This document shows positions 2,080 through 54,236 of a DNA stretch of 64,000 nt, piece after piece. Position 1 is the first letter of the stretch; each line of letters opens with the position of its first letter. The notes beneath the pieces are model-generated. The model saw nothing but the letters and a program-made list of their open reading frames with translations. It did no database searches and had not been told where the DNA came from. This DNA is from Micromonospora sp. NBC_01813 (GTDB taxonomy: Bacteria; Actinomycetota; Actinomycetes; Mycobacteriales; Micromonosporaceae). The position numbers and the translations under genes were made by a program. The stretch is taken from NCBI RefSeq assembly GCF_035917335.1, contig NZ_CP109067.1, positions 994,501 to 1,058,500 on the forward strand, given 5' to 3'.

Positions 2080-2093
2080 AGCAAGCGCTTGTG
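2080..2093. promoter_or_regulatory. KstR2-type operator, box 1
   Basis: AGCAAGCGCTTGTG contains the perfect palindrome CAAGCGCTTG and fits the KstR2 consensus AnCAAGnnCTTGnT except at the last base. It lies 45 bp before the aldehyde dehydrogenase start and probably governs the operon 2139-7936. Confidence 0.75.
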
Positions 2094-2138
2094 AGGTGAA
2101 GCTGTGCAGTTGCCGTCGTCCAGCCAGACACCGATCCG

Positions 2139-3629
2139 ATGCCCCGGCGACCTGCGATGGCGGTGATCACCCGGCCCGACGACCCGACCGACCTGCTCCG
2201 ACCCGGCATCCTGATCGGCGGGCAGTGGCGGCACACCGGCACCGGCGGCCAACGCGAGCACGTCGATCCCGGTACCGGGCGGGTCCAGCAGACCTTCGCC
2301 CTCGCCGACGCGGCCGAGGTCGACGACGCTGTCGCCGCCGCCCGGGCCGCGCTGCCCGAGTGGCGACGCTGGCCGACCGACCGACGCCGGGAGGTCCTGA
2401 CCCGGCTCGGTGACCTGATCCGGGCCAACGCCGCTGAGCTCGCCGCGATCAACGCCCTGGAGGTCGGCACCCCGGCCGCGCTGTCACATGGTCGTTACAC
2501 CACCGGGCAGACCTTCTTCGACTACTACGCCGGCTGGCTGGACAAGGCGACCGGCGACTCGCTGCGGATGCCCGGCGCGCTCGACCTGACCCTGCTGGAA
2601 CCGGTCGGAGTGGTCGGCGCCATCCTCACCTGGAACCATCCGCTGGCCAACATGCAGACCACGGTGGCCCCGGCGCTGGCGGCCGGCTGCACGGTGATCG
2701 TCAAGCCACCGGAGCAGGCCCCGTTCGCCGCGCTGCGGTTCGGCCGGTTGTGCGCCGAGGCCGGCCTGCCGCCCGGAGTGGTCAACGTGCTGCCCGGCGG
2801 TCCGGCGGTCGGCGACGCCCTGGTCCGGCACCCCGACATCGACAAGATCGGCTTCGTCGGCGGCCCGGCGACCGCGAGCCGCATCCAGGCGGCCGCGGCC
2901 CCGACCCTCAAACCACTGCTGCTGGAACTCGGCGGCAAGAGCGCGTCGCTGGTCTTCCCGGACGCCGACCTCGACCGGGCCTGCCGGTTGGCGCTGCTGA
3001 TCACCGCGAACAGCGGCCAGGGCTGCACCATCCCGACCCGGATGTTCGTCCACGACGACGTGTACGACCAGGTACTCGACCGGCTGGTCGGCGGAATCGG
3101 CGCGGTCACCGTCGGCGATCCGTTCGACCCGACCGTCCAGATGGGGCCGCTGATCGACGCGGCCGCCCGCGACCGGGTCGTCGAGGTCATCGACCGGGCC
3201 CGCCGCGACGGTGCCGGCGACCTGGTGCTCGGCGGGCATCGGCTCGGCGGCGAACTCGCCGACGGGTGCTACGTCGCACCGACGGTCTTCTCCGACGTGG
3301 ACCCGCACAGCGAGCTCGCCACCGAGGAGATCTTCGGGCCGGTGCTGTCGGTCTGCCGGTTCCACGACGAGGCCGAGGCCGTCGAAGCGGCCAACGCCAG
3401 CCGGTACGGCCTCGCCGGCTACGTCCACACCCGCGACGTCGACCGGGCGCTGCGGATCGCCTCGGCGCTTGACGTCGGCAACGTCGGCGTCAACGGGGCC
3501 GGTGCGCCCGCCGGACCGTTCGCCCCGTTCGGCGGGGTGAAACAGAGCGGCTACGGCAAGGTCGGCGGGCTCGCCGGGCTACTGGAGTTCAGCCGGATCA
3601 AGAACGTACTACTGGCGGTCGACGAATGA
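2139..3629 (+). CDS. Aldehyde dehydrogenase (NAD(P)+), box-1 operon
   Basis: A 496-residue aldehyde dehydrogenase of normal family length. Visible elements are the TWNHPLAN segment of the cofactor fold, the general base in LELGGKSASL (E263), the catalytic cysteine in NSGQGCTIPTR (C296), EEIFGPVLSV and the C-terminal FGGVKQSGYGK. It should oxidise an aldehyde to an acid; the substrate is not evident. It is the first gene of a run with an SDR, an Old Yellow Enzyme and a flavoprotein, all downstream of box 1, so a role in the early catabolic steps is inferred. An internal ATG at 2157 (MAVITRPDD) is an equally possible start; neither has a strong ribosome binding site. Confidence 0.9.
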   Translation: MPRRPAMAVITRPDDPTDLLRPGILIGGQWRHTGTGGQREHVDPGTGRVQQTFALADAAEVDDAVAAARAALPEWRRWPTDRRREVLTRLGDLIRANAAELAAINALEVGTPAALSHGRYTTGQTFFDYYAGWLDKATGDSLRMPGALDLTLLEPVGVVGAILTWNHPLANMQTTVAPALAAGCTVIVKPPEQAPFAALRFGRLCAEAGLPPGVVNVLPGGPAVGDALVRHPDIDKIGFVGGPATASRIQAAAAPTLKPLLLELGGKSASLVFPDADLDRACRLALLITANSGQGCTIPTRMFVHDDVYDQVLDRLVGGIGAVTVGDPFDPTVQMGPLIDAAARDRVVEVIDRARRDGAGDLVLGGHRLGGELADGCYVAPTVFSDVDPHSELATEEIFGPVLSVCRFHDEAEAVEAANASRYGLAGYVHTRDVDRALRIASALDVGNVGVNGAGAPAGPFAPFGGVKQSGYGKVGGLAGLLEFSRIKNVLLAVDE

Positions 3630-3672
3630 GCCCGCCCGGCGGAGCACCGGGCGGCAGTGGGGAGAGCGTGCG

Positions 3673-4443
3673 ATGACACGACTGGTGGATGGCGCGGTGC
3701 TGGTCACCGGCGCCGGATCGGGAATCGGGGCGGCGATCGCCCGGGAGGTCGCCGCGGCCGGTGCGGCGGTGGCCGTCAACGACCTGGACCCGGCCGCCGC
3801 GCGGGCCACCGCCGACTCGGTCGTCGCGGCCGGCGGCACCGCGTACCCGGTCCCGGGGGACGTGGCCGACCCACAGGCCGCCGCCCGGGTCGTCGGCACC
3901 GCCGGTGAACTGCTCGGCCGGCTCACCGGACTGGTCAACAACGTCGGGGTGGTGCGCGGCGCGCCGCTGCGCTCGATCGGCGCGGACGACTGGGACGCGA
4001 TCATGCGCATCGACTGCGCCAGCGCGCTCTACTGCAGCCAGGCGGCACTGCCCGCGCTGGCCGCCGGCACCGGCGCGATCGTCAACCTCTCCTCGCTCTG
4101 CGGCATCCACGCCGCCCCCGGCGCCGGCGCCTACAACGCGGCCAAGGCGGCGGTCATCTCGCTGACCCGGCAGATGGCGCTGGAGTGGGGACCGGACGGG
4201 ATCCGGGTCAATGCCATCGCCCCGGGCATCGTCAGCGGCACGAACTTCTCGGCCAGCAGCCGCGATCCGCAGGCCGCCAAGCGTCGCGGCGCCGCCGTCC
4301 CGCTCGGGCGTACCGGATCGGCGGCGGACATCGCCCCGGTCGCGGTGTTCCTGCTCGGCGACGCCGCCCGGTACGTCACCGGCCAGGTGATCGCCGTCGA
4401 CGGCGGGCTGGGCGTCGCCCTGCAGACGCTGCTGCCGGCGTGA
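3673..4443 (+). CDS. SDR-family oxidoreductase
   Basis: A 256-residue classical short-chain dehydrogenase/reductase. The nucleotide-binding TGAGSGIGAAIA is at the N-terminus, followed by NNVGVV, a catalytic serine in NLSSLCGIH and YNAAK (YxxxK). The end VTGQVIAVDGGLGV is typical of the family. It lies 43 bp after the aldehyde dehydrogenase, and its stop overlaps the GTG of the next gene by 3 bp, so translation is probably coupled. The aspartate-type acidic residue after the second strand (NDLDP) suggests NAD(H) preference. A hydroxy/keto interconversion on the island's substrate is inferred only from context. Confidence 0.88.
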   Translation: MTRLVDGAVLVTGAGSGIGAAIAREVAAAGAAVAVNDLDPAAARATADSVVAAGGTAYPVPGDVADPQAAARVVGTAGELLGRLTGLVNNVGVVRGAPLRSIGADDWDAIMRIDCASALYCSQAALPALAAGTGAIVNLSSLCGIHAAPGAGAYNAAKAAVISLTRQMALEWGPDGIRVNAIAPGIVSGTNFSASSRDPQAAKRRGAAVPLGRTGSAADIAPVAVFLLGDAARYVTGQVIAVDGGLGVALQTLLPA

Positions 4444-6548
4444 CCGGCGGGCAGACCAGCGAGCTGAGTGGCCGCGCCGGAAATCGACCGGAGCCGATCG
4501 GCGATCCGTTGGCAGCGCCGATCCTGCTGCGCCGCCACCGGCTACGCAACCGGATGGTGATGACGCCGCACCTCGGCCGGCTGCCACCTCGGCGGCTGCT
4601 GCGGTACGTCGCCGAGCGCGCCGCCGGTGGAGTCGCGATGATCGTGCTGCCCGCCGGTCAGGGGGTGTACGCCAACCCGGTCTACCCGGCGCAGGCGTGT
4701 GCCGGCGACCCGGACGGCTACACCGACCCCGACGCGGTCTCGTTCCACGTCCGCGACCCCCGGCACCGGGACCTGCTGCTCGCCGGCGCGCACGACCAGT
4801 TGGCCAGGCTCGCGGCGGCGGTACACAGCGGCGGCGCGGTCGCCGTCGGCCAGATCCATCACCCCGGCGCCGAACGTGGCTGGGACAACTTCCAACCGAC
4901 GGTGGCGCCGTCCGAGGTACGCGCCGACGACACCGGCGCCGTACCGCACGAACTCACCGCCACCGAGATCGACGACCTGGTGTACGGCTACGACGGCACC
5001 GCCGCGGCCATCGTCGCCGCCGGATTCGACGGCGTCGAACTGCACGCCGGTCACGGCTATCTGCTGAACCGGTTCCTGTCGCCGCACTACAACCGCCGCA
5101 CCGACCGGTACGGCGGATCGCTGGCGGGCCGGCTGCGGCTGATCCGCCGGATCCTGCGGTCGATCCGCGGCACCGTGGGAGACGGCGCGCTGCTCGGCAT
5201 CCGGCTCACTGCCGGTGAGGAGCTACCGGCCGGGATCGACCCGACCGGTGCGGCCGAGGTCGCCGCCGGGCTGGCCGACCTCGTCGACTACGTCAACCTG
5301 TCCCTGGGCAACCATGACGGGCTGCGCGCCGGCCGGCCGGCCACCGCGTACACCGGTCCGTGGTTGGTGCCACCGGCGCCGGCCGCGGCGGCCGCCCGGC
5401 TGGTCCGCGCCGCCGTCGGCGTCCCGGTCGTGGTCACCGGCCGGATCACCGACCCGGCCCTCGCCCGCGAGCTGGTCGCCGACGGGACGGCCGACCTGGT
5501 CGGCCTGGCCCGGGCGCTGATCGCGGATCCCGCCTTCGCCCGGCAGGCGATCAGCGGGGACGCGGCCCGGATCACGCGCTGCGTCGGCTGCAACGAGTGC
5601 GTACGGGTGCCGTTCTCCTGCCCGGCGAACCCGCGCGCCGGGCGGGAAGCCGAGTTCGACCCGCCACCCGCCGCCGCCCGCCGCCCCGATCGCCGGGGCG
5701 TCGACCGGAGCCAGCCGGCCCGCCGCCGGATCGCGGTGGTCGGCGCGGGGCCCGCCGGCCTGGAGGTGGCGATCGGCGCGGCACGCGGCGGAGCCGACGT
5801 CACCCTGATCGAGGCAGCCGACTCGGTCGGCGGGGTGCTGCGCCACCTGGTCGGCTCGCCGCTGCTCGCCGCCTGGACGCCGCTGCTGCACCGGCTGGAG
5901 CGACGGCTGCGAGCGCTGGTGGACCGGCCCGACCCGGCCGGTGGGCGGATCACGCTGCGGACCGGGTCGGCCGCCACCGCCGCCGACCTGGTCGCGCTGG
6001 ACGCGGAGCTGGTGGTGCTGGCCACCGGTAGCCGTGCCCGGCCGACGGATTTCCCGAGCTACCACCCGCCGCTGACCACACTGGACCTGCTTGCTGGCCG
6101 CCGGCCGCCGGCGGGCGCGCCGGTCGTGTTGGTCGGCGGCGCCGAGCGTCACCTCGAGCCGTTTCTCGCCGCCGACCTGCTGGCTGGTGCCGGCTGGCCG
6201 GTACGGCTGGTCACCGAGTGCGTCGACATCGGACCCGACCTCGAACCACGGACCCGGTCCGCGCTGCTGCGTCGGCTGTTCGCCGGGTCGGTGGTGATCA
6301 CGCCGATGACGCGGGTGTGCCGGTGGGTCGGCGACACGGTCGAGGTCGAGCAGTTGTTCAGCGGGCACCGGTCCACCGTTGCCGCCGGCGCGGTGGTGCT
6401 CGCGCACGGCCGGGCGGCGGCGGCCGACCTGCGTACGGCCCTGCCGGCGCAGCTGCGATGCCAGCTGGTCGGCGACGCGCTGGCGCCGCGCCGGTTGACC
6501 CACGCGGTGCTGGAAGGAGCCCGGTTCGGCCATGGACTGTCCCCGTGA
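4440..6548 (+). CDS. Old Yellow Enzyme with Fe-S and FAD/NAD modules (FadH/BaiH type)
   Basis: A 702-residue three-module reductase resembling 2,4-dienoyl-CoA reductase and the bile-acid enzymes BaiCD/BaiH. Residues 25-370 form the FMN barrel, with the active-site stretch ELHAGHGYLLNRFLSP and NRRTDRYGGSLAGRLR. A cysteine cluster C381-x2-C384-x2-C387-x6-C394 follows for a 4Fe-4S centre; its spacing is shorter than in E. coli FadH. From about residue 425, RIAVVGAGPAGLEVAIG opens the pyridine-nucleotide/FAD module. The GTG start at 4440 overlaps the SDR stop. The expected chemistry is NAD(P)H-driven reduction of a conjugated C=C, or the reverse. The exact substrate is unknown; its place in a KstR2-type regulon suggests a steroid-like enone. 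Confidence 0.85.
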   Translation: MTGGQTSELSGRAGNRPEPIGDPLAAPILLRRHRLRNRMVMTPHLGRLPPRRLLRYVAERAAGGVAMIVLPAGQGVYANPVYPAQACAGDPDGYTDPDAVSFHVRDPRHRDLLLAGAHDQLARLAAAVHSGGAVAVGQIHHPGAERGWDNFQPTVAPSEVRADDTGAVPHELTATEIDDLVYGYDGTAAAIVAAGFDGVELHAGHGYLLNRFLSPHYNRRTDRYGGSLAGRLRLIRRILRSIRGTVGDGALLGIRLTAGEELPAGIDPTGAAEVAAGLADLVDYVNLSLGNHDGLRAGRPATAYTGPWLVPPAPAAAAARLVRAAVGVPVVVTGRITDPALARELVADGTADLVGLARALIADPAFARQAISGDAARITRCVGCNECVRVPFSCPANPRAGREAEFDPPPAAARRPDRRGVDRSQPARRRIAVVGAGPAGLEVAIGAARGGADVTLIEAADSVGGVLRHLVGSPLLAAWTPLLHRLERRLRALVDRPDPAGGRITLRTGSAATAADLVALDAELVVLATGSRARPTDFPSYHPPLTTLDLLAGRRPPAGAPVVLVGGAERHLEPFLAADLLAGAGWPVRLVTECVDIGPDLEPRTRSALLRRLFAGSVVITPMTRVCRWVGDTVEVEQLFSGHRSTVAAGAVVLAHGRAAAADLRTALPAQLRCQLVGDALAPRRLTHAVLEGARFGHGLSP

Positions 6549-7936
6549 CCGCGGCCGGTGACCCCACGCCGACCGTGGACGTGCTGGTGGTCGGCGGCGG
6601 TCTCGCCGGCTGGTGCGCGGCCGTCCGCGCCCAGCAGGCCGGCGCCACGGTCGTCGTGGTCGAGCGGGCACGCCGGCGACCCGGCTGGGGCAACTCGGTG
6701 CTCTCCGGCGGCGCGCTGCACGCCGCGTTGCGCGATCCACGGACCGACCCCGGGCAGCTACGGGCGGCGGTGCGCGAGCTGACCGACGGCCGGGCCGACG
6801 AGGCGGTGCTGCGGACCTGGAGCGAACGCCTGCGGCCGACCCTGGAGTGGCTCACCGCCCACGGGGCCCACCTGGTCACCGATGGTGACGCCGCGCATCG
6901 GGCGCGGGTGTTCGCCCCGGTACGGCGGACCGAACCGGGGCGGCGGTACGCCGGCTTCGGCGTGCGGCAGTTCCTGAGCGGACTCGCCCGCGAGTTCATC
7001 GGCGCCGGTGGCACCGTGCGTCAGCCCGCCCGGGCCCGTCGGCTGCGACCCGGGCCCAGCGGCGGATGGCTGGTCGGACTGGACCTGCCGACCGCGGCGA
7101 CCGAGTGGATCCCGACCCGTACGGTGGTGCTCGCCGACGGCGGTTTCCAGGCCGACCCGGTGCTGCTGCGCCGCGGTCTGGGCACCGACCAGGTGCTGCT
7201 GCGCGGTGCCGGCACCGCGACTGGCGACGGGCTGCGGATGGGGTTGTCGGCGGGCGGGGTGCTGGTCGAGGGCGCCGGCTTCTACGGACACCTGCTGGCC
7301 AGGCAGGCCCGGTGGGACCGGCGACTGTGGCCGTATCCGATCCTGGACCCGCTGGCATCGGTCGGGATCGTCGTCGGGCCGGACGGCCGCCGGCTGGTCG
7401 ACGAGAGCCAGCACGGGGTGACGACGACGAACGCGGTCGCCAGGTCCGGCCACCCCGACCGGTGCTGGTTGATCTTCGACGACGTCGCCTGGCGGACCGA
7501 CGGCCTGATCGGTGCGCCGGCACCCAACCCGTACCTGCTCGACTGCGACGCCACCGTGCTGGTCGCGGAGGACCCCGAGACGTTGGCCGGCCTGGCCGGC
7601 CTCGATCCGGCCGGCCTCGCCGCGACGCTGACCGAGGTGACGGCGGCACCGGGCGGCGCGTCGCCGCCACGCGGCGGGCGGCCGAAGGTGGTCGCGCCGC
7701 CGCTGCGGGCGGTGCCGTTGGTCGCCGGTGTCACGTTCACCCTCGGCGGGCTGCAGGTCGACGGCCGGGCCCGGCTGCGCGACGCGGCCGGCGAGGCGAT
7801 CGGCGGACTGTACGCCGCCGGCGGCACGATGGGCGGGCTGCACGGTGGCCCACGTGCCGGCTACGCGGGCGGGCTGCTGGAAGCCGCCGTCTTCGGCCTG
7901 GTCGCTGGTGAGACAGCGGCCGGGCCGGCTGGCTGA
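6545..7936 (+). CDS. FAD-dependent dehydrogenase, TcuA/fumarate reductase-like
   Basis: A 463-residue single-subunit flavoprotein of the succinate dehydrogenase/fumarate reductase flavoprotein class, closest in length and layout to tricarballylate dehydrogenase (TcuA). VDVLVVGGGLAGWCAAVRA binds FAD; NSVLSGGALHAAL is the second FAD contact, and the C-terminus has GLYAAGGTMGGLHGGPRAGYAGG, where the family ends with its FAD-capping loop. The GTG at 6545 overlaps the stop of the Old Yellow Enzyme, so it is the fourth gene of the box-1 operon. It probably introduces or removes a C=C with flavin. No secretion signal or heme motif is present, so the electron acceptor is unclear. An 18-bp perfect palindrome (7929-7946) overlaps its stop codon. 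Confidence 0.82.
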   Translation: MTAAGDPTPTVDVLVVGGGLAGWCAAVRAQQAGATVVVVERARRRPGWGNSVLSGGALHAALRDPRTDPGQLRAAVRELTDGRADEAVLRTWSERLRPTLEWLTAHGAHLVTDGDAAHRARVFAPVRRTEPGRRYAGFGVRQFLSGLAREFIGAGGTVRQPARARRLRPGPSGGWLVGLDLPTAATEWIPTRTVVLADGGFQADPVLLRRGLGTDQVLLRGAGTATGDGLRMGLSAGGVLVEGAGFYGHLLARQARWDRRLWPYPILDPLASVGIVVGPDGRRLVDESQHGVTTTNAVARSGHPDRCWLIFDDVAWRTDGLIGAPAPNPYLLDCDATVLVAEDPETLAGLAGLDPAGLAATLTEVTAAPGGASPPRGGRPKVVAPPLRAVPLVAGVTFTLGGLQVDGRARLRDAAGEAIGGLYAAGGTMGGLHGGPRAGYAGGLLEAAVFGLVAGETAAGPAG

Positions 7937-7981: not shown

Positions 7982-10015
7982 TCACCGGTGCAGATGGCAG
8001 GCCGACCAGCCGCCCCCGGGGATCGGCACCGGCTTCGGGGTCACCTCGGCGCAGATCTGCATGACGGACGGGCAGCGGGTGCGGAACCGGCAGCCCGACG
8101 GTGGGTCGATCGGGCTGGGAATCTCGCCGGTCGGCGTCGTGCGGCCGGCGAGGCCATGGCTGGCCGGCGTCAACATCGAGGCCAGCAGCGTCTTGGTGTA
8201 CGGGTGCGCGGGCTCGGCGTACACCCGGCTGGCCGGTCCGCTCTCCACCACCCGGCCCAGGTACATCACCGCGAGTTCGTGGCTGAGGTGATGCACCAGG
8301 GCAAGGTCGTGGGCGATGAAGAGGAAGGCGATCCCCTCGGACTCCTGAATGTCCTGGATGAGGTTCACGATCTGCGATCGGGTGGAGACGTCGAGCGCGC
8401 TCACCGGCTCGTCACAGATGATCAGTTGTGGTTCCAACGCCAACGCCCGGGCGAACGAGATCCGCTGGCGCTGGCCGCCGGAGAGCGAGCGCGGCGACCG
8501 GCGGGCCAGCGACGGGTCCAGCCCGACCCGTTCCAGCAGCCGTCCGATCCGGGAGCGACGCTCGGCCGGGGTGAGGCGGGAGTGCACCACCAGCGGCTCG
8601 GCTATGCTCTGGCCGACCGTCATCGAGGGATCCAGCGAGGCGTACGGGTCCTGGAAGACCATCTGCATGCCGCGTCGGTGGGACCGTAGCTCACCGCGGC
8701 TCATCGCGGCCAGGTCCCGGCCGAGGAACGTGACCTCCCCGCTGGTGGGTTCGATCAGCCGCAGAGCGAGTCGGCCGACGGTCGACTTGCCCGAGCCGCT
8801 CTCACCGACCAGACCGAGGGTGCGACCGCGCCGTACCGTCAGATCGACCCCGTCGACGGCGTGCACCACGACCCGGCGCAGCCCCAGCACGCCGCGGCGG
8901 ACCGGGAACTGCTTGCCGAGGTCGCGGATCCGCAGCACCGTGTCGGCGTCGGCGTCGGTGCGGGGATCGGCCGGATCGGCCGGCGGGCCGGGATCCGGCA
9001 CCGCGCCGGTGCCGGGCAGGTCGAGCTCGGCGTGCCGGCCGCAGCGGGTGCCCCGGGCGCCGTCGGCCAGCACGGTCCATGGTGGATCCTGGCGTTCCCA
9101 CTGCGGGAGTACGTGCGCGCACCGGTTGGCGAACCGACAGCCGGCGGCGGGGAAGCTGCCCGGTCGGGGCACCTGGCCGGGGATCACCGGCAGCCGCCGC
9201 GACTTCGCCGCGACGTCGGCGCTCGACGCGATGAGCGCGCTGGTGTACGGATGCCGGGGCGCGGCGAAGACATCACCGACCGGTCCGGATTCGACGACCT
9301 GTCCGGCGTACATGACGCTGAGCTGTTGCGCCATGGTGGAGATGACGCCGAGATCGTGCGAGATCAGCAGCAACGCCATGTCGAGCGCGTCGCGCAACTC
9401 GCCGAGCAACTGGAGGATCTGCAACTGCACCGTCACGTCCAGCGCGGTGGTGGGCTCGTCGGCGATCAGCAGTTCCGGCTCACCGGCGATGGCCATCGCG
9501 ATCAGCGCCCGCTGGGCCATCCCGCCGGACATCTCGTGCGGATAGCTGGCCGCCCGTTGCCGGGGATCCGGGATCCGGACCAGGTCCAGCAGTTCCACCG
9601 CGCGCTCGTTGGCCTGTCGTCGGGTCATCGGGGTGTGCCGGCGCAGGCTCTCGACGATCTGGTTGCCGACCGTGAACGCCGGGTTGAGACTGCTCAGCGC
9701 CTCCTGGAAGACCATGCCGATCCGGCTGCCCCGGAACCGGGTCAGTTCGGCGGCGGAGCGGCCGGTCAGCTCCTCACCGGCGAACCGGATCGAGCCGCCG
9801 GTGACCCGGGCTCCCTGGGGCAGCAGCCCGGCCAGCGCCAGGCAGGTGATGCTCTTGCCGGACCCGCTCTCGCCGACCAGCCCGAGGGTCTGGCCGGCGG
9901 CGACGGTCAGGTCCACCTGCTCGACCAGGTGGACCGCGTCGCGGCCGGAGCCGACGCTCACGGTCAGCCCGCTGACCTCCAGTAATGGGCGGGTCGTCGT
10001 CGTGGTGGAGGTCAA
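7982..10015 (-). CDS. ABC importer A: fused double ATPase (DppD-DppF type)
   Basis: One 677-residue protein carries two complete oligopeptide-type ABC ATPase domains. Domain 1 has Walker A GLVGESGSGKSITC, an MSGGMAQRALIAMA signature and Walker B LLIADEPTTALDV. Domain 2 has GESGSGKSTVGRL, LSGGQRQRISFARAL and ICDEPVSALDVS. Each ends in the cysteine-bearing oligopeptide tail (CRFANRCAHV; CRFRTRCPSV). In most bacteria these are two proteins. The frame is open further upstream, but the TTG at 10015 overlaps the permease stop (TTGA) and has GGAG six bases before it, so I chose it. It powers the permeases 10012-11897 with binding protein 12135-13778. It converges with the box-1 operon. Confidence 0.9.
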   Translation of the reverse strand: MTSTTTTTRPLLEVSGLTVSVGSGRDAVHLVEQVDLTVAAGQTLGLVGESGSGKSITCLALAGLLPQGARVTGGSIRFAGEELTGRSAAELTRFRGSRIGMVFQEALSSLNPAFTVGNQIVESLRRHTPMTRRQANERAVELLDLVRIPDPRQRAASYPHEMSGGMAQRALIAMAIAGEPELLIADEPTTALDVTVQLQILQLLGELRDALDMALLLISHDLGVISTMAQQLSVMYAGQVVESGPVGDVFAAPRHPYTSALIASSADVAAKSRRLPVIPGQVPRPGSFPAAGCRFANRCAHVLPQWERQDPPWTVLADGARGTRCGRHAELDLPGTGAVPDPGPPADPADPRTDADADTVLRIRDLGKQFPVRRGVLGLRRVVVHAVDGVDLTVRRGRTLGLVGESGSGKSTVGRLALRLIEPTSGEVTFLGRDLAAMSRGELRSHRRGMQMVFQDPYASLDPSMTVGQSIAEPLVVHSRLTPAERRSRIGRLLERVGLDPSLARRSPRSLSGGQRQRISFARALALEPQLIICDEPVSALDVSTRSQIVNLIQDIQESEGIAFLFIAHDLALVHHLSHELAVMYLGRVVESGPASRVYAEPAHPYTKTLLASMLTPASHGLAGRTTPTGEIPSPIDPPSGCRFRTRCPSVMQICAEVTPKPVPIPGGGWSACHLHR

Positions 10016-11965: not shown

Positions 11966-11979
11966 AACGAGCGCTTGTT
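11966..11979. promoter_or_regulatory. KstR2-type operator, box 2
   Basis: AACGAGCGCTTGTT differs from AnCAAGnnCTTGnT by one base in the left arm. It lies between the binding protein's terminator and the permease start at 11897, so it should control importer A permeases and ATPase separately from the binding protein. Confidence 0.65.
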
Positions 11980-47746: not shown

Positions 47747-47756
47747 GGACCCGACC

Positions 47757-48539
47757 ATGACATCCACAGCAGACAGCGCGATGGTGACCACCAGCACCGA
47801 CGACGAGGGAGTGGTCGAGGTCGTGGTGGACCGGCCACCGGTCAACGCCCTGCCGGTCGCCGGCTGGCACCGCCTCGCCGAGGCGATCACCGCCGCCGGT
47901 GCCGACCCGGCGACCCGGGTGGTGGTGCTGCGGGCGCAGGGCCGAGGCTTCAACGCCGGGGTCGACATCAAGGAGATCCAGGCCGATCCGGGCCACGACA
48001 AGCTGATCGGCGCGAACCGGGGCTGCTTCGCCGCGTTCGCCGCCGTCTACGACTGCCCGGTGCCGGTGATCGCCGCCGTACAGGGCTTCTGCCTCGGTGG
48101 CGGCATCGGCCTGGCCGGCAATGCCGACATCATCGTGGCCAGCGAGGACGCCACGTTCGGCCTGCCCGAGGTGGACCGGGGCGCGCTGGGGGCGGCGACC
48201 CACCTGTCCCGGCTGGTGCCGGCGCACCGGGCCCGCGCGATGCTCTACACCGCCGCCACCGCGACCGCCGCCGAACTGCACCACTACGGGTCGGTGCTGG
48301 CGGTGGTGGCGGCGGCCGACCTGCGGGCCACGGCGTTGACACTCGCCCGGCAGATCGCGGCGAAGGATCCGACCGTGATCCGGGCGGCGAAGGAGTCCCT
48401 CAACGGCATCGACCCGTGGGACGTCAAACGCAGCTACCGGTACGAGCAGGGCTTCACCTTCGAACTCAACCTCTCCGGTGTCGCCGACCGGGTCCGCGAC
48501 GGCTTCGGCGGGTCGACCGGCGCGAGTCGGGAGGGCTGA
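47757..48539 (+). CDS. echA20: EchA20, crotonase-fold ring-opening hydrolase
   Basis: A 260-residue crotonase-family protein. GRGFNAGVDIKEIQ, ANRGCFAAFAAVYDCPVPVIAAVQGFCLGGGIGLAGNADIIVASEDATFGLPEVDRGALGAATHLSRLVP and the end EQGFTFELNLSGVADRVRD follow mycobacterial EchA20. That enzyme hydrolyses the bicyclic diketone CoA ester (ring D opening) to give the IpdAB substrate. The oxyanion-hole glycines (GGGIG) are present. It starts 11 bp after ipdF and ends 4 bp before an acyl-CoA dehydrogenase. A short extra N-terminus (about 10 residues) is seen here. Confidence 0.9.
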   Translation: MTSTADSAMVTTSTDDEGVVEVVVDRPPVNALPVAGWHRLAEAITAAGADPATRVVVLRAQGRGFNAGVDIKEIQADPGHDKLIGANRGCFAAFAAVYDCPVPVIAAVQGFCLGGGIGLAGNADIIVASEDATFGLPEVDRGALGAATHLSRLVPAHRARAMLYTAATATAAELHHYGSVLAVVAAADLRATALTLARQIAAKDPTVIRAAKESLNGIDPWDVKRSYRYEQGFTFELNLSGVADRVRDGFGGSTGASREG

Positions 48540-48542
48540 GGC

Positions 48543-49682
48543 ATGGATCTGCGTCCAGACCCGGTGGACGAGCAGTTCCGCGCCGAGGCCCGCGACTGGC
48601 TGCGTACCCACCGGCCGGCCCGACCGCTGCCCTCCGGCGACACCCGCGACGGCTTCGCCGCCCACCTCGACTGGGAACGCCAACTCTTCGACGCCGGCTG
48701 GGCGGTGGTCTCCTGGCCGCGCCGCTACGGCGGCCGGGAGGCCTCCCTCTGGCAGTGGCTGATCTTCGAAGAGGAGTACGCCGCCGCCGGTGCCCCACAG
48801 CGGGTCACCCAGAACGGCATCTTCCTGCTCGCCCCGACGCTGTTCGAGTTCGGCACCGACGAGCAGCGCGACCGGATCCTGCCGGCGATGGCCGCCGCGT
48901 CTCAACTGTGGTGCCAGGGCTGGTCCGAGCCGGGCGCCGGCAGCGACCTGGCCGCGTTGACCAGCCGGGCGGTCCGCGACGAAGCGGCCGGCGGTTGGCG
49001 GCTGACCGGGCACAAGACCTGGACCACCCGGGGCGCGTTCTGCACCCACCTGTTCGGCCTGTTCCGCACCGACCCGCAGCAGCGGCGGCACCGTGGGTTG
49101 AGCTACTTCCTGGTGCCGTTGGACGCCCCCGGCGTGACCGTACGCGGCTTCGGTCGCTTCGACGGCGACGAGGGTTTCGCCGACGTCTTCCTCGACGACG
49201 TCTTCGTCCCCGACGCCGACGTGATCGGCGAGGTCGGAGCCGGCTGGCGGGTCGCGATGGCCACCACCGGCTCCGAACGTGGCCTCACGCTGCGCCCGCC
49301 GGGCCGGTTCACCGCGGCCGCCGCCCGGCTGGTCGAGCTCGCCGCCGCCCGGCCGGACCGGCTCACCGGCCGGCTCCGCGAGCAGGTGGTACGGGCGTGG
49401 CTCGGCGCCCGGGCGTACCACCTGTTCACCCTGGCCCAGGTGACCCGGATGCTCGACGGCGACCCGCCGGGCGCGGCGTCCAGCCTCAACAAGATTCACT
49501 GGTCCGAGCTGGACATCGCGTTGCACCGCACCGCCCTCGAACTGCTCGGGCCCGACGCCGAACTCGACGCCGGCTGGACCCGCGGCTTCCAGTTCTCCCT
49601 GGCCGGCCCGATCTACGCCGGCACCAACGAGATCCAACGCGGCATCGTCGCCGAGCGACTGCTCGGCCTGCCCCGACGCTGA
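48543..49682 (+). CDS. Acyl-CoA dehydrogenase, large-type subunit (FadE30/31-like)
   Basis: A 379-residue acyl-CoA dehydrogenase. WCQGWSEPGAGSDLAALTSRA is the FAD/substrate loop, HKTWTTRGAF and GWRVAMATTGSERG follow, and it ends with the family signature YAGTNEIQRGIVAERLLGLPR. FadE enzymes of steroid degradation are often heteromers of a catalytic and a partner chain, and a second, shorter gene begins 13 bp downstream, so these two probably assemble. In the KstR2 regulon FadE30 acts on HIP-CoA and FadE31-33 on later intermediates; which step this one takes cannot be decided by eye. Confidence 0.87.
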   Translation: MDLRPDPVDEQFRAEARDWLRTHRPARPLPSGDTRDGFAAHLDWERQLFDAGWAVVSWPRRYGGREASLWQWLIFEEEYAAAGAPQRVTQNGIFLLAPTLFEFGTDEQRDRILPAMAAASQLWCQGWSEPGAGSDLAALTSRAVRDEAAGGWRLTGHKTWTTRGAFCTHLFGLFRTDPQQRRHRGLSYFLVPLDAPGVTVRGFGRFDGDEGFADVFLDDVFVPDADVIGEVGAGWRVAMATTGSERGLTLRPPGRFTAAAARLVELAAARPDRLTGRLREQVVRAWLGARAYHLFTLAQVTRMLDGDPPGAASSLNKIHWSELDIALHRTALELLGPDAELDAGWTRGFQFSLAGPIYAGTNEIQRGIVAERLLGLPRR

Positions 49683-49694
49683 GAAGGGAGCGGT

Positions 49695-50741
49695 GTGCGG
49701 TTCGCCCTCACCGACGACCAGATCACCCTCCGCGACGCGGTCGGTGACCTGCTCGCCGCCGAATGTCCGCCGGCGGTGGTCCGCGCCGCCTGGCCCGGCG
49801 GCGACCAGGAGCCGGTGGACCGGCTCTGGACCGCCCTCGCCGAGATGGGCGTGCTCGCCGCCATGGTGCCCGAGTCCGCCGGCGGACTCGGACTGACCGA
49901 GGTGGACCTGGTGCCGGTGCTCACCGCCGCCGGGTACGCGGCGGTGCCACTGCCACTGGCCGAGACCGCCGCCGTCGCCGGCCCGCTGCTCGCCGCCCTC
50001 GACGACCCGGGCGGACACCTCGCGGCGCTCACCGAAGGCCGCTGCCGGATCGCCCTCGCCGGCCCGACCGCGCTCGTCCCGTACGGGCAACGGGCCGACC
50101 TGGCCCTGTCGACGCACGGTCCGGACGGACCCCGGCTGATCCGGCTTGCCGCGGCCACGACCGCTCCGGTGCCGACAGTCGATGGATCGCGGGCCGCGCT
50201 GCGGCTCGTCGACCAGACTGCCGCCGGCCCGTCCGCCGGCACCCGGCTTGACATCGGCGACGACCTGCTGGCGCTGACCGCCGACCGGGCCACCCTGGCG
50301 GCGGCGGCGCACCTGGTCGGTCTGGGTCGCCGGCTGCTCGACCTCACGGTCGCGCACGTCGGCACCCGCCACCAGTTCGGTGCGCCGATCGGGAGCTTCC
50401 AGGCGGTCAAGCACCAGCTCGCCGACGCCCTGTTGGGCCTGGAACTCGCCGCGCCGATGGTGCTCGCCGCCGCCTGGGCCACCGCGACCGGTGCCGCCAC
50501 CCGGGCCGCCGACGTGTCGGCCGGCTACCTGCTCGCCGCCGACGCCGCCGAGCGGGCTGCCCGGGTCGCGCTGCAGTGCCACGGCGCGATCGGCTACACC
50601 GTCGAGTACGACCTGCACCTGTACGCGAAGCGGGTCTGGGCGACGACCGCGGCGACCGCCGGCACCGACGCCCACCTCGACCGGCTCGGCACCGCACTCG
50701 GACTACCCGCCGCCACCACCGACCCAGGAGGACGACCGTGA
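49695..50741 (+). CDS. Acyl-CoA dehydrogenase, short partner subunit
   Basis: A 348-residue acyl-CoA dehydrogenase-family protein. FALTDDQITLRDAVGDLLAAECPP at the N-terminus, HVGTRHQFGAPIGSFQAVKHQLADALLGLELA in the FAD-contact helix and LQCHGAIGYTVEYDLHLYAKRVW near the end are conserved, but the middle domain is shortened and lacks the SEPGAGSD loop of its neighbour. This is the pattern of the non-catalytic partner in alpha2beta2 steroid acyl-CoA dehydrogenases. The start is GTG at 49695 after AAGGGAG. The stop overlaps the GTG of the next gene. Confidence 0.85.
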   Translation: MRFALTDDQITLRDAVGDLLAAECPPAVVRAAWPGGDQEPVDRLWTALAEMGVLAAMVPESAGGLGLTEVDLVPVLTAAGYAAVPLPLAETAAVAGPLLAALDDPGGHLAALTEGRCRIALAGPTALVPYGQRADLALSTHGPDGPRLIRLAAATTAPVPTVDGSRAALRLVDQTAAGPSAGTRLDIGDDLLALTADRATLAAAAHLVGLGRRLLDLTVAHVGTRHQFGAPIGSFQAVKHQLADALLGLELAAPMVLAAAWATATGAATRAADVSAGYLLAADAAERAARVALQCHGAIGYTVEYDLHLYAKRVWATTAATAGTDAHLDRLGTALGLPAATTDPGGRP

Positions 50742-51634
50742 CCGACGACGCCACGAGTCCACCACCCGCCGACGACCGGCCGGAGCCCGCCGACGAGGTG
50801 GTCCGGTACACCACCGACGGGCCGGTGGCGGTCGTCACCATGAACCGCCCCCGCTACGCCAACGCCCAGAACTCGGCGATGACCTACGCCCTGGACGACG
50901 CGTTCGCCCGGGCGGCCGACGACGACGATGTCCGGGTCGTCGTGCTCGCCGGAGCCGGCAGACACTTCTCCGCCGGCCACGACATCGGCACCCCGGGCCG
51001 CGACATCGACCGGAGCTTCCCCCGCCGGGCCGGGCTGTGGTGGGACCACGTCGGCAAGGCCGGCGCGGAGAGCCGCTTCGCCCGCGAGTCCGAGGTGTAC
51101 CTCGGTATGTGCCGGCGCTGGCGGGAACTCCCCAAGCCGACCATCGCGATGGTGCAGGGCGCATGTATCGCCGGCGGCCTGATGCTCGCCTGGTCCTGCG
51201 ACCTTATCGTCGCCGCCGACGACGCCCAGTTCGCCGACCCGGTGGTCCGGATGGGAATCCCGGGCGTCGAGTACTTCGCCCACCCGTGGGTGATGGGACC
51301 CCGCTTCGCCAAGGAGTTCCTGTACCTCGGCGAACGCGTCGACGCCGGGCGGGCGTTGGCGCTCGGCATGGTCAACCGGGTGGTGCCCCGCGCGGAGCTG
51401 CAACCATTCACGATGGACATGGCGGGTCGGATCGCCACCATGCCCCGGCTCGGGCTGGCGTTGACCAAGAAGGCGGTCAACCAGGCCGAGGATCTGATGG
51501 GCCTGCGCGCCGGCATGGACTCGGTCTTCGGGCTGCACCACGTCGCCCACGCGCACAACGCCGAGGTCGGCGCGGACCCGCTGGCCGGGCACGACGCCCG
51601 CAGCATGCGCCAGCGGACGGACGGCACCGACTGA
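50738..51634 (+). CDS. Enoyl-CoA hydratase/isomerase family protein
   Basis: A 298-residue crotonase-family protein. VAVVTMNRPRYANAQNSAM, GRHFSAGHDIGTPGRD, PTIAMVQGACIAGGLMLAWSCDLIVAADDAQFADPVVRMG and LTKKAVNQAEDLMGLRAGMDSVF are present. The long charged insert after the first oxyanion residue (about residues 90-125, WWDHVGKAGAESRFARE) sets it apart from short-chain hydratases and suggests a bulky substrate. GTG 50738 overlaps the dehydrogenase stop; the frame's upstream extension lies only in that gene. It would hydrate the enoyl-CoA product of the FadE pair. Confidence 0.87.
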   Translation: MTDDATSPPPADDRPEPADEVVRYTTDGPVAVVTMNRPRYANAQNSAMTYALDDAFARAADDDDVRVVVLAGAGRHFSAGHDIGTPGRDIDRSFPRRAGLWWDHVGKAGAESRFARESEVYLGMCRRWRELPKPTIAMVQGACIAGGLMLAWSCDLIVAADDAQFADPVVRMGIPGVEYFAHPWVMGPRFAKEFLYLGERVDAGRALALGMVNRVVPRAELQPFTMDMAGRIATMPRLGLALTKKAVNQAEDLMGLRAGMDSVFGLHHVAHAHNAEVGADPLAGHDARSMRQRTDGTD

Positions 51635-52539
51635 TGCGCTTCGACCTGCAACTGTTCGGGCTGCCGGCACCGGAGTACGCACCGCTCGCGGTCCGCGCCG
51701 AGCAGCTCGGCTTCGACACCGTGTGGCTTGCCGACCATGTGGTCACGCCGGCCCACTACGCGCCCACGTACCCGTACCGGGAATCCGGCGACCCCGGTAT
51801 CCGGCCGAGCACCCCGCTGGCCGACGTGACGGTGACGCTCGGACACCTGGCCGCCCGGACCACCCGGATCCGGCTCGGCACCGGCGTGCTGATCCTGCCG
51901 CTGCGGGACCCGTTCCACGTCGCCCGCGCCTGGGCCAGTCTGCAGCAGCTCTCCGCCGGCCGCGCCGTCCTCGGCGTCGGGGTCGGCTGGATGGCCGAGG
52001 AATTCGCCGCCCTCGGCGCCGACTTCGGCACCCGGGGCGCCCGCACCGACGAGATGCTGCGGGTGCTGGACCTGCTCTGGTCCGGTCGCCCGGTCACCCA
52101 CCAGGGGCGGTTCTTCGACTTCTCCACCGTCCACTTCGGTCCGGCACCCGAGCCGGCGGTGCCGTTGGTGGTGGGCGGCCACAGCCGGGCGGCGCTGCGG
52201 CGGGCCGCGCGGCACGGCACCGGCTGGTTCGGCCCGGACGTCGATCTGGCGACCTCGGCCCGGCTGTGTGGCCGGATAGCCGAACTGCGCGACGACTTCG
52301 GCCGGGCCGGCCACGACTTCACCCACCACGTCCGGCTGTCCGGCGAGATCAGCGTCGGTGCCGTCGAGGCGTACCGCGATGCGGGCCTGGACCACCTGGT
52401 CGTCGCGCCCTTCACCCGGCTGCCGCCAACCGTCACCCGGGCGGACCGGTTGGCCGCCCTCGACTCCGTCGCCGAGCGGCTCGCGCCGCTGTGGCCCGAT
52501 CCCGCACCCACCGGCGAACCCCCGGGAGACCACTCATGA
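51634..52539 (+). CDS. LLM-class (F420-type) oxidoreductase
   Basis: A 301-residue luciferase-like monooxygenase-family protein of the F420-dependent branch. RAEQLGFDTVWLADHVV, IRLGTGVLILPLRDPFHVARAWASLQQLSAGR, GVGVGWMAEEFAALG and VPLVVGGHSRAALRRAARHGTGWF are typical. In actinobacteria such enzymes use F420 for hydride transfer to or from C=C or C-OH groups. ATG 51634 shares one base with the hydratase stop (TGATG), and its own stop overlaps the next ATG. Homologues of this kind are not part of the core mycobacterial KstR2 regulon as I recall it, so it may mark a different substrate. The cofactor is inferred from family, not seen. Confidence 0.83.
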   Translation: MRFDLQLFGLPAPEYAPLAVRAEQLGFDTVWLADHVVTPAHYAPTYPYRESGDPGIRPSTPLADVTVTLGHLAARTTRIRLGTGVLILPLRDPFHVARAWASLQQLSAGRAVLGVGVGWMAEEFAALGADFGTRGARTDEMLRVLDLLWSGRPVTHQGRFFDFSTVHFGPAPEPAVPLVVGGHSRAALRRAARHGTGWFGPDVDLATSARLCGRIAELRDDFGRAGHDFTHHVRLSGEISVGAVEAYRDAGLDHLVVAPFTRLPPTVTRADRLAALDSVAERLAPLWPDPAPTGEPPGDHS

Positions 52540-54236
52540 CCGCCGCCACCGATCCTGCCAGCCCTGCCGATCCTGCCGGCTCGACAGTCTTCGACCGGGC
52601 GACCATCGACGAGTACACCCGGGCCGGGCACTGGGACGACGAGACGATCGCCTCGATGGTCGCCCGCCACGCCGCGGACCGCCCCGACGCCCCAGCGTTC
52701 ATCGCCACCGACGCCACCCTGACCTGGTCGGCGTACGACGCGCTCAGCACCCGACTGGCCGGTGGGTACGCGCTGGCCGGCCTGCGACCCGGCGACCGGA
52801 TCGCCACCCTGCTCACCGGCGGCGCGCTGGTCCACGTCGCCTACCTGGCGGCGCAGAAGGCCGGCCTGGTGACGGTCGGCATCGGGCCCCGCGCCGGTAC
52901 GGCGGAGGTCCGGCACCTGGTCCGGCGTACCCGGGCGGCGGTGCTGCTGACCCGTGCGGTGCACCGGGGTCGCGACGCCGCCGAACTGGTCGGCGAACTG
53001 CGGACCGGAGTCGGCGAGGCGGACGGGCCGGCGCATCTCACCGTGGATCTGACCGCCGCCGGGGAACTGACCCTGGTCCGCGACGGCCAGCAGTTGGCGC
53101 TGCCCGACCCGGCCACCGCCGCCGCCGCGATCGCCGGCCGGGGTCTGGGCGCCAACGACCTGTTCTTCCTGAACTCCACGTCGGGCACGACCGGGCTGCC
53201 CAAGTGCGTGATGCAGACGATGAACACCCGGAAGTACTTCGGGCCGCTCGCCGCCGAGGCGGCCCGGTTCGGTCCCGACGAGGTGTTCGCCAGTGTGCTG
53301 CCCGCCCCGTACGGCTTCGGCCAGTGGAGCGCGCACGTGGTACCGACCATGTACGGCTACCCCACCGTGCTGGCGGAGGAGTTCGACGCGGAGCAGACCT
53401 GGAGACTGATCGAGCGGCATCGAGTCACCGTGCTCGCGGCAGTGACCAGCCAGTTCGTCATGATGCTCAACGCCGCCGGATCCGCCGGCCGGGACCTGTC
53501 CTCGCTGCGGGTGCTGTTCACCGGTGGGGAACGGGTGCCCGCCGACCGGGCGGCCCGGTTCGAGCAGGAGACCGGGTGCGCCGTGCTGCAGTTCTACGGT
53601 TCCAACGAGGCCGGACCGATCAGCGTCACCCGGGCCGACGACGACCGGGATCGCAGACTGGGCACGGCCGGACGGGTGATCCCGCAGATGCGGGTACGGC
53701 TGTTCGACGCTGACGGCGCCGACGTGACCGCGTCGGGCGGGCCGGGTCAGTGCGCCGCGCGTGGCCCCGGCCTGACACCCGGTTACTACGACGACGCGCC
53801 CGCCAACCGGCAGCTGTTCCACCCGCAGGGCTGGATGCTCACCGGGGACCTGGTCCGGATCGACCCGGCCGGCTACCTGACGGTGACCGGTCGGGTGGCG
53901 GACTTCATCATCCGTGGCGGGCACAACATCAGCGTGTTGGCGGTCGAGGAGGCGGTGGGCGCGTGCGGGCGGGTCGCCCAGGTCGCGGTGGTGCCGGCCG
54001 CCGACGACGTCCTCGGTGAGCGTGCCTGCGCGTACGTGGTGACGACCGATGGCACCGACCTGACCTTGGACGAACTCCGCGCCGATCTGGCCGGCCGGGG
54101 CATCTCCAAGTACGAGTGGCCGGAGCGGCTGGTCACGATGGACGAGTTGCCGCTGAGCGCGGGTGGCAAGACGGACAAGGCCCGGTTGCGGGCGGACGCC
54201 GCCACCCGGTTCGGCAAGACCCATCCCGCAATGTGA
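52536..54236 (+). CDS. Acyl-CoA synthetase (AMP-forming)
   Basis: A 566-residue ANL-superfamily ligase. The P-loop STSGTTGLPKCV, YGSNEAGP, WMLTGDLVRID, DFIIRGGHNISVLAVEE and the catalytic lysine in the final LSAGGKTDKARL are intact. It should activate a carboxylic acid with ATP and CoA; in this position the FadD3 role (activation of HIP) is expected. However, the sequence is about 60 residues longer than mycobacterial FadD3 and looks more like benzoate/dihydroxybenzoate-type ligases, so I give no symbol. ATG 52536 overlaps the LLM stop. It is the last gene of the ten-gene run under box 8, followed by a hairpin at 54392. Confidence 0.87.
   Translation: MTAATDPASPADPAGSTVFDRATIDEYTRAGHWDDETIASMVARHAADRPDAPAFIATDATLTWSAYDALSTRLAGGYALAGLRPGDRIATLLTGGALVHVAYLAAQKAGLVTVGIGPRAGTAEVRHLVRRTRAAVLLTRAVHRGRDAAELVGELRTGVGEADGPAHLTVDLTAAGELTLVRDGQQLALPDPATAAAAIAGRGLGANDLFFLNSTSGTTGLPKCVMQTMNTRKYFGPLAAEAARFGPDEVFASVLPAPYGFGQWSAHVVPTMYGYPTVLAEEFDAEQTWRLIERHRVTVLAAVTSQFVMMLNAAGSAGRDLSSLRVLFTGGERVPADRAARFEQETGCAVLQFYGSNEAGPISVTRADDDRDRRLGTAGRVIPQMRVRLFDADGADVTASGGPGQCAARGPGLTPGYYDDAPANRQLFHPQGWMLTGDLVRIDPAGYLTVTGRVADFIIRGGHNISVLAVEEAVGACGRVAQVAVVPAADDVLGERACAYVVTTDGTDLTLDELRADLAGRGISKYEWPERLVTMDELPLSAGGKTDKARLRADAATRFGKTHPAM

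What the first reader, a model, noticed from the sequence alone, without database searches (positions are those of the whole stretch)
2080..54236. A 52-kb regulon marked by eight KstR2-type boxes
Eight palindromes built on (C/A)(A/G)AGCGCTTG lie at 2080, 11966, 13867, 22641, 22745, 32586, 42875 and 44165. Four (22641, 32586, 42875, 44165) fit AnCAAGnnCTTGnT at every fixed base. All sit in intergenic promoter positions, and the KstR2-like repressor is encoded between two transporter groups. Uptake, redox steps and ring cleavage thus appear to be one co-regulated unit, much larger than the mycobacterial KstR2 regulon.
Basis: partly seen in the sequence, partly recalled or inferred. Interest (0 to 1): 0.85.

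Follow-up and report, generated by a model that had tools for sequence, protein, structure and literature searches.

The report
Expanded KstR2 steroid-breakdown regulon, eight boxes
A bacterium, probably an actinobacterium, appears to control about thirty genes for importing and dismantling the last two steroid rings from eight copies of one DNA switch, although the usual enzymes that open the first two rings were not found in its genus, so it may feed on something other than whole steroids or use an undescribed route.

Summary
All eight palindromes are at the stated places and between genes, and the motif is confined to this cluster: the five CAAGCGCTTG and seven ANMRAGCGCTTGNT places of the 7.63-Mb genome all fall in the window. 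All eight boxes recur in order in four of six congeners; 142 of 144 box columns are identical in five genomes, against 367 of 594 flanking columns. The TetR protein is KstR2-like: 49 of 80 relatives have ipd-type genes within the fetched flanks, and 45 of 79 carry the same box upstream. The regulon covers about 30 genes: two Opp-type importers, redox enzymes and the C/D-ring pathway. The gentisate operon has no box and its own IclR gene; the 3-hydroxybenzoate-hydroxylase operon starts 232 bp from a box. So "one co-regulated unit" is only partly right. New here: ipdA occurs in five of seven genus genomes, yet no KshA, HsaC or over-cut-off HsaA was found in any; the four other ipdA-positive genomes of the 41 searched have KshA and HsaA. 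Likely function: uptake and breakdown of C/D-ring (HIP-type) acids. A ring-A route through hydroxyphthalate, 3-hydroxybenzoate and gentisate is possible but unproven.

The parts
2080..2093 (.). KstR2 box 1 (AGCAAGCGCTTGTG)
   Evidence: 45 bp before ALDH start
2139..7936 (+). Box-1 operon: aldehyde dehydrogenase, SDR, FadH/OYE-type reductase (mycofactocin OYE_2/BaiCD-like, below both cut-offs), FAD_binding_2 protein
7982..11897 (-). Importer A: two permeases and a double ATPase (Opp/Dpp type)
11966..11979 (.). KstR2 box 2 (AACGAGCGCTTGTT)
   Evidence: 68 bp before permease start
12135..13778 (-). Importer A substrate-binding protein (SBP_bac_5)
13867..13880 (.). KstR2 box 3 (ACAAAGCGCTTGCT)
   Evidence: 88 bp before SBP start
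13994..14758 (-). IclR-type regulator, no KstR2 box at its promoter
14816..21932 (+). Gentisate operon: gentisate 1,2-dioxygenase, FAA hydrolase, mycothiol maleylpyruvate isomerase, SDH-like flavoprotein, ferredoxin, polyketide-cyclase/CoxG-like protein, KstD/ChcC1-like dehydrogenase; no KstR2 box
21942..22583 (-). KstR2 ortholog (TetR_N, TetR_C_24)
22641..22654 (.). KstR2 box 4 (ATCAAGCGCTTGGT), 57 bp before the kstR2 start
22745..22758 (.). KstR2 box 5 (AGCGAGCGCTTGAT), 72 bp before SBP B start
22831..29276 (+). Importer B SBP, two permeases, two SDRs, aminotransferase class I/II
29871..30332 (+). SnoaL_4 protein; 594-bp gap upstream, so its place in the box-5 operon is uncertain
30341..32541 (-). 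Importer B ATPases
32586..32599 (.). KstR2 box 6 (AACAAGCGCTTGGT), 44 bp from both divergent starts
32644..33973 (+). SnoaL_4 protein and SDR (GGDEF-EAL 34092-36302 may follow)
36329..42642 (-). 4,5-dihydroxyphthalate-decarboxylase-like protein, SDR, phytoene-desaturase-like flavoprotein, ALDH, 3-hydroxybenzoate 6-hydroxylase-like protein; regulation by box 7 doubtful
42875..42888 (.). KstR2 box 7 (ACCAAGCGCTTGTT), 17 bp before fadA6, 232 bp from the 3HB6H start
42906..44147 (+). fadA6-like thiolase (PRK07851 model over its cut-off)
44165..44178 (.). KstR2 box 8 (ATCAAGCGCTTGGT), 65 bp before ipdA
44244..54236 (+). ipdA, ipdB, ipdC, ipdF, echA20, two acyl-CoA dehydrogenases (ipdE1/ipdE2-like), enoyl-CoA hydratase, F420-type LLM oxidoreductase, AMP-binding acyl-CoA ligase

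Best explanation
The eight palindromes are operators of the KstR2-type repressor encoded at 21942-22583. Shown by sequence: the protein is KstR2-like, the boxes sit in promoters, and boxes and gene order are conserved in five species. Inferred: a dimer at each box blocks transcription, including its own; a HIP-CoA-type thioester releases it; this switches on about 30 genes, namely two Opp-type importers, dehydrogenase/reductase operons, and fadA6 plus the ipd operon, which break down steroid rings C and D. Because KshA, HsaC and over-cut-off HsaA were not found in the genus, the regulon most likely serves import and catabolism of perhydroindane (C/D-ring) acids, or of relatives made outside the classical 9,10-seco route, and not of whole sterols.
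For: KstR2 identity: best PDB hits 2ibd E 9.6e-50 and KstR2 4w97/4w1u E 1e-45. Of 80 related loci, 49 have an IpdA-, IpdC-, IpdF- or EchA20-like gene (50% identity or more) within the fetched flanks, IpdA in 41; of the 12 loci at 60% KstR2 identity or more, 8 (Dactylosporangium, Phytohabitans, Virgisporangium) have ipdA, B, C, F and echA20, one has part of the set, one only fadA6, two none. SGSLYHHF in the HTH is kept in 89 of 89 aligned rows, as is the pair RDxxW (that this Arg and Trp touch HIP-CoA is recalled). Boxes: confined to the window genome-wide; CG-centred box within 500 bp upstream of 45 of 79 KstR2 relatives, reversed control 0 of 79; 142/144 against 367/594 identical columns; all intergenic. 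Pathway: IpdA and IpdB match the 6co6 CoA-transferase subunits at 2.6e-99 and 4.4e-88 (that 6co6 is IpdAB of RHA1 is recalled); PRK models that I read as FadA6, IpdF, EchA20 and a further hydratase are over their cut-offs. No classical upper pathway: KshA_C 0 of 7 genus genomes, HsaC 0 of 7, HsaA over cut-off 0 of 7, while IpdA-positive G023, G031, G033 and G036 all have KshA and HsaA.
Against: No binding or expression data. 31 of the 80 related loci show none of the four ipd-type genes within the fetched flanks, some of which are cut short, and 34 of 79 have no CG-centred box in the 500 bp upstream. The acyl-CoA ligase is not FadD3 by NCBIfam (216 bits against a cut-off of 657), and only two acyl-CoA dehydrogenase genes are in the cluster, so the HIP pathway is not shown complete. 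Substrates of the importers are unknown. Sub-cut-off HsaA-like flavin monooxygenases exist in the genome (11 matches, best 234 of 450 bits; all 41 genomes have some). A second KstR2-like protein (61%, G000:C1:1514835) with the same HTH core could bind the same boxes.
Confidence: 0.72

Rival explanations
1. The cluster encodes one complete alternative steroid or secosteroid pathway: ring A leaves as a hydroxyphthalate/3-hydroxybenzoate and is burnt through gentisate, while rings C/D go through the ipd pathway. KstR2 and IclR share the control.
For: Decarboxylase-like, 3HB6H-like, gentisate dioxygenase, maleylpyruvate isomerase and FAA hydrolase together would make a route from a hydroxyphthalate to fumarate and pyruvate; the stretches holding these genes align colinearly between the boxes in all five genomes; KshA and over-cut-off HsaA were not found.
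Against: No KstR2 box at the gentisate operon; the 3HB6H operon is 232 bp from its box; in an Arthrobacter plasmid the same aromatic set stands together and no ipd gene was matched in that 19-kb stretch, so it may be an independent module. No enzyme that would cut the ring system was identified.
Confidence: 0.2
2. A narrower form of the best explanation: an ordinary HIP pathway kept for scavenging steroid scraps released by other bacteria, with unrelated aromatic genes beside it.
For: Two importers under KstR2 boxes; re-uptake of excreted cholate intermediates by CamABCD/CamM in Rhodococcus and cross-feeding are described in a review (PMC8399759, passages).
Against: Colinear retention of the aromatic genes in five species whose aligned blocks differ at about 11-18% of bases suggests a functional link.
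Confidence: 0.4
3. The boxes belong to another TetR regulator, such as the 61% paralog at 1.515 Mb, or to both.
For: Same HTH core.
Against: The paralog has no CAAGNNCTTG at up to one mismatch in the 624 bp upstream, and it is also present in G002, which has no ipdA.
Confidence: 0.1
4. Chance palindromes.
For: Bare AGCGCT is not enriched; the core is not more frequent genome-wide than its reversed control.
Against: Confinement to the cluster, intergenic position and conservation.
Confidence: 0.01

Closest known systems
KstR2 regulon of Mycobacterium and Rhodococcus (Kendall 2010, PMC3068626, passages; pathway roles from PMC5380842, passages)
   Same: TetR repressor, box AnCAAGnnCTTGnT, box at its own promoter, boxes at ipd/fadA6-type genes
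   Different: 3 boxes and 15 genes there; here 8 boxes and about 30 genes with two Opp-type importers; KshA, HsaC and over-cut-off HsaA not found in the genus
Predicted KstR2 regulon of Nocardioides simplex (PMC7807495 and PMC7593942, passages)
   Same: KstR2 sites predicted at many operons (29, of which 10 had raised expression on phytosterol)
   Different: The passages tabulate kstR and hsaF/hsaG for that species and name a 3-ketosteroid 9-alpha-hydroxylase; its bile-acid cluster is said to have no KstR2 sites
CamABCD/CamM re-uptake of cholate metabolites in R. jostii RHA1 (from review PMC8399759, passages; original paper not held)
   Same: Transporters for steroid catabolites with aromatised ring A or perhydroindane structure
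   Different: Whether CamABCD is of the SBP_bac_5 class could not be checked; importers in front of KstR2 boxes were not seen in the passages and listings I saw
Arthrobacter sp. zg-Y820 plasmid gentisate-type cluster
   Same: IclR, cupin (35% to the window dioxygenase), FAD monooxygenase (43%), decarboxylase-like protein (57%), OYE-like reductase (33%), maleylpyruvate isomerase (36%)
   Different: No ipd gene or KstR2 matched in the 19-kb stretch

Membership tests
KstR2 repressor and regulon | TetR protein closest to solved KstR2 | tested here: met
   KstR2 4w97/4w1u E about 1e-45, behind only 2ibd ('possible transcriptional regulator', 9.6e-50); the next hit is 7e-16
KstR2 repressor and regulon | AnCAAGnnCTTGnT box before its own gene | tested here: met
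   22641-22654, 57 bp before the start
KstR2 repressor and regulon | Boxes before ipd/fadA6 genes | tested here: met
   42875 and 44165
KstR2 repressor and regulon | HIP-CoA contact residues Arg-162/Trp-166 (role recalled; no held paper found) | tested here: inconclusive
   Arg and Trp four residues apart kept in 89 of 89 aligned rows, but their equivalence to 162/166 is inferred
KstR2 repressor and regulon | Binds the boxes and releases on HIP-CoA | not testable with these tools
   needs purified protein
HIP (C/D-ring) catabolic pathway | ipdAB, ipdC, ipdF, echA20, fadA6 | tested here: met
   ipdC by a FabK-type hit below cut-off and 57-74% identity to genes beside ipdA/ipdB in other loci
HIP (C/D-ring) catabolic pathway | FadD3 HIP-CoA synthetase | tested here: inconclusive
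   FadD3-family model 216 bits against cut-off 657 for the cluster's ligase; rest of the genome not searched
[quoted passage not shown]
   0 of 7 genus genomes; found in 5 of 41: G023, G031, G033, G036 and, weakly, G040
[quoted passage not shown]
   HsaA over cut-off 0 of 7 genus genomes, 4 of 41 in all, with weaker family members in all 41; HsaC 0 of 7 at E 1e-8, no positive control in that call
Gentisate pathway as part of the KstR2 regulon | KstR2 box at its promoter | tested here: not met
   none between 14758 and 14816

The most novel reading that the evidence does not exclude
A KshA- and HsaABCD-independent aerobic pathway for a steroid or a natural 9,10-secosteroid (vitamin D type): the link between ring A and the C/D part is cut, ring A is aromatised by the KstD/ChcC1-like enzyme and released as 4-hydroxyphthalate or 3-hydroxybenzoate, then decarboxylated, hydroxylated to gentisate and cleaved, while the C/D acid enters the KstR2-controlled ipd pathway. 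The carbon count fits a C6-C7 cut of a secosteroid, but that is my own reasoning from recalled structures and is speculation.
Probability: 0.15. Interest if true: 0.88.

Novelty: new variant of a known kind. Interest (0 to 1): 0.6.

Why it matters
KstR2/ipd genes are normally read as the lower half of sterol degradation through KshA and Hsa enzymes. In the 41 genomes searched (own plus 40 relatives), ipdA goes with KshA and HsaA in four genomes but stands without them in five species of one genus, inside a conserved 52-kb cluster with importers behind the same box. That makes it directly testable whether bacteria live on C/D-ring remnants or use another way into the HIP pathway. Bergstrand 2016 wrote that steroid uptake systems other than Mce4, in other taxa or for other steroids, had not been identified (PMC4810484, passage); two KstR2-boxed importers are concrete candidates.

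Tried and rejected
Bare AGCGCT as the signal: not enriched. Gentisate operon as a KstR2 target: no box. Shared operator between the IclR-gentisate and 3HB6H promoters: no common word of 8, 9 or 10 bases on either strand. Importer substrate from PDB or plasmid neighbours: uninformative. Horizontal transfer of the cluster was not pursued. Literature searches did not show in their listings a KstR2 regulon with Opp-type importers or an ipd-positive, KshA-negative genus; the library lacks most subscription papers and I saw listings or passages only, so this is weak evidence. The secosteroid reading has no direct support beyond gene content. No tool named the genus.

Rows dropped before counts: one of 80 KstR2 loci (L080, under 500 bp upstream) was left out of the upstream-box count (79 used). 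The 89 aligned KstR2 rows come from 88 sources, one of them with two rows. The IpdA count uses E up to 1e-40 and leaves out weaker CoA-transferases, for example 31% at G000:C1:2992940. In one search the listing showed hits of at least 38% identity and half the query length, at least 30%, at least 50%. One search listed only aligned blocks over 1500 bp. In one search the 34 matches of 397 do not include G001 or G004, and the listing does not show whether these two were drawn.
Full report
What was checked. Four match ANCAAGNNCTTGNT at every fixed base; a mean of 0.01 was found in shuffles of the window. The bare centre AGCGCT is not enriched. In the whole 7.63-Mb genome CAAGNNCTTG occurs at 28 places, fewer than its reversed control (123); only five have the centre CG, and all five are in this window. 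The looser ANMRAGCGCTTGNT occurs without mismatch at seven places, all in the window; with up to one mismatch it is at or below the reversed control (47 against 64 strand-rows). The count of the core is not high (5 against 9 for the reversed control): the signal is that all sites fall in one cluster. Only 5.15% of the bases of 2000-54236 are intergenic in my gene model, yet all eight boxes are. The nearest predicted start codons are 17 to 88 bp away, close to the 22 to 82 bp reported for regulated genes in M. smegmatis (PMC3068626, passages).

Conservation. Four of the six congeners held (G001, G003, G004, G006) carry the same eight boxes in the same order; aligned blocks over 1500 bp are 82-89% identical. 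In alignments of about 90 bp around each box, 142 of 144 box columns are identical in all five genomes, against 367 of 594 outside. G001, G003 and G004 have a ninth, related box in front of inserted genes; in G003 these read as a flavin monooxygenase-like protein, an alpha/beta-hydrolase and an SDR, so the regulon gains or loses operons. G002 and G005 lack ipdA; G005 keeps a KstR2 ortholog (85-86%) with one box.

The regulator. The protein at 21942-22583 has TetR_N and TetR_C_24 domains and matches solved KstR2 at about 1e-45, just behind 2ibd, a 'possible transcriptional regulator'. Of 80 related loci with organism names, 49 have an IpdA-, IpdC-, IpdF- or EchA20-like gene within the fetched flanks, IpdA in 41; 31 have none, and some flanks are short. 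Of the 12 closest (60% identity or more), eight from Dactylosporangium, Phytohabitans and Virgisporangium have ipdA, B, C, F and echA20 together. In 45 of 79 loci with enough upstream sequence a CG-centred CAAGCGCTTG lies within 500 bp upstream, against 0 of 79 for the reversed pattern; in the other 34 it does not. SGSLYHHF in the HTH and the Arg/Trp pair RDxxW are kept in 89 of 89 aligned rows; that this pair contacts HIP-CoA is recalled, and I could not find the source paper. A 61% paralog at 1.515 Mb, seen in all 7 genus genomes, shares the HTH core but has no box at up to one mismatch in the 624 bp upstream.

What the boxes serve. Box 2080: ALDH, SDR, OYE-type reductase, FAD protein. Box 11966: two permeases and a double ATPase. 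Box 13867: an SBP_bac_5 binding protein. Boxes 22641 and 22745: kstR2 itself and, divergently, a second SBP, two permeases, two SDRs and an aminotransferase. Box 32586: two ATPases and, divergently, a SnoaL_4 protein and an SDR. Box 42875: fadA6. Box 44165: ipdA to an acyl-CoA ligase, ten genes (families; operons by gene order and gaps). I count 30 genes conservatively and up to 37 if the 29871 SnoaL_4 gene, the GGDEF-EAL gene and the five-gene 3HB6H operon are added. Eight genes, the IclR gene and the seven-gene gentisate-to-KstD-like operon, have no box.

The C/D-ring enzymes. IpdA and IpdB match the two subunits of the 6co6 CoA-transferase at 2.6e-99 and 4.4e-88 (that 6co6 is IpdAB of R. 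jostii is recalled). Four NCBIfam PRK models that I read as the FadA6, IpdF, EchA20 and a further hydratase family are over their cut-offs. IpdC has a FabK-type hit below cut-off, as expected from the report that IpdC shares 30% identity with FabK (PMC5380842, passages). The two acyl-CoA dehydrogenases resemble an IpdE1/IpdE2 pair, below cut-off for IpdE2 (120 of 450 bits). The ligase is not FadD3 by NCBIfam (216 of 657 bits).

The missing upper pathway. KshA_C (PF19298) was found in 5 of 41 genomes, one of them weakly, and in 0 of 7 of this genus (own genome alone). HsaA over its curated cut-off was found in 4 of 41 genomes, none in the genus; weaker members of that flavin-monooxygenase family occur in all 41, in the window's genome 11 with a best of 234 of 450 bits. 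An HsaC from a same-family genome (over the NCBIfam HsaC cut-off) had no match at E 1e-8 in 7 genus genomes, with no positive control inside that call. IpdA at 1e-40 was found in 9 of 41: five in this genus, and G023, G031, G033 and G036, which all have both KshA and HsaA. So in this sample ipdA without KshA/HsaA is peculiar to this genus. A non-homologous 9-alpha-hydroxylase is not excluded, and KshB was not searched.

The aromatic genes. Between the boxes lie a gentisate 1,2-dioxygenase (3nst, 3e-145; 270 of 442 bits for the NCBIfam model), FAA hydrolase and maleylpyruvate isomerase, a 3-hydroxybenzoate 6-hydroxylase-like protein (4bjy, 'probable salicylate monooxygenase', 9e-107; 338 of 459 bits for the NCBIfam 3-hydroxybenzoate 6-monooxygenase model) and a 4,5-dihydroxyphthalate-decarboxylase-like protein (9jp7, 7e-81), whose plasmid relatives are often annotated as ABC substrate-binding proteins. 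Together they would take a hydroxyphthalate to fumarate and pyruvate. An Arthrobacter plasmid has a matching IclR-linked set, and no ipd gene was matched in its 19-kb stretch, so the module can stand alone. Homologs of the decarboxylase are scattered: 34 of 397 genomes of the order at 1e-50, and in the 18 neighbourhoods of other genomes read, no ipdA- or KstR2-type match appeared beside them. The KstD-like protein next to kstR2 scores somewhat higher for 4-oxocyclohexanecarboxylate dehydrogenase (474 of 1000 bits) than for KstD (425 of 789), under both cut-offs.

Interpretation. The regulon is supported by comparative evidence and is KstR2-type. Its mechanism (repression, autoregulation, release by HIP-CoA) is inferred from the mycobacterial case. 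Its biological job is inferred: import and catabolism of C/D-ring acids, or a whole pathway that bypasses KshA and Hsa enzymes. The second would be the exciting case; gene content allows it, and regulation does not clearly support it. Larger predicted KstR2 regulons exist (29 operons in N. simplex, PMC7807495, passages), so size alone is not new; importers behind KstR2 boxes and the absence of the upper pathway are what I did not find described in the searches named in Tried and rejected.

Noticed in passing
G000:C1:1514835-1515410 (L017, L026, L027): A second KstR2-like regulator, 60-62% identical across the genus and present in all 7 genus genomes including G002 without ipdA; no CAAGNNCTTG at up to one mismatch in the 624 bp upstream; an IpdE1-like (40%) match lies about 4 kb away.
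   Followed up: partly
L142-L150 (G001, G003, G004), between importer A permease and SBP: Ninth KstR2-type box before inserted genes (in G003 a flavin monooxygenase-like protein, an alpha/beta-hydrolase and an SDR); in G001 the region also holds a frame that reads to me like a transposase, not scanned.
   Followed up: partly
L156 (G005:C1:1930000-1949999): A KstR2 ortholog (85%) with one box, a divergent SDR and a GGDEF-EAL gene, but no ipdA at 1e-40 in that genome: an apparent remnant or minimal form of the cluster.
   Followed up: partly
window 56809-59338: Integrase-core and DDE transposase genes just beyond the end of the cluster.
   Followed up: no
window 34092-36302: A GGDEF-EAL protein inside the catabolic cluster, within the blocks aligned to four congeners and near KstR2 in G005 (82%).
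   Followed up: no
window 42643-42874: Conserved blocks GGTTGCCCGACGCTAACC and GAAGAATCT in the 3HB6H promoter of five species, suggesting a separate regulator.
   Followed up: partly
L210 (Arthrobacter sp. zg-Y820 plasmid): IclR-linked gentisate-type cluster with a 57% relative of the decarboxylase-like protein and an OYE-like reductase, apparently a hydroxyphthalate-type pathway.
   Followed up: partly
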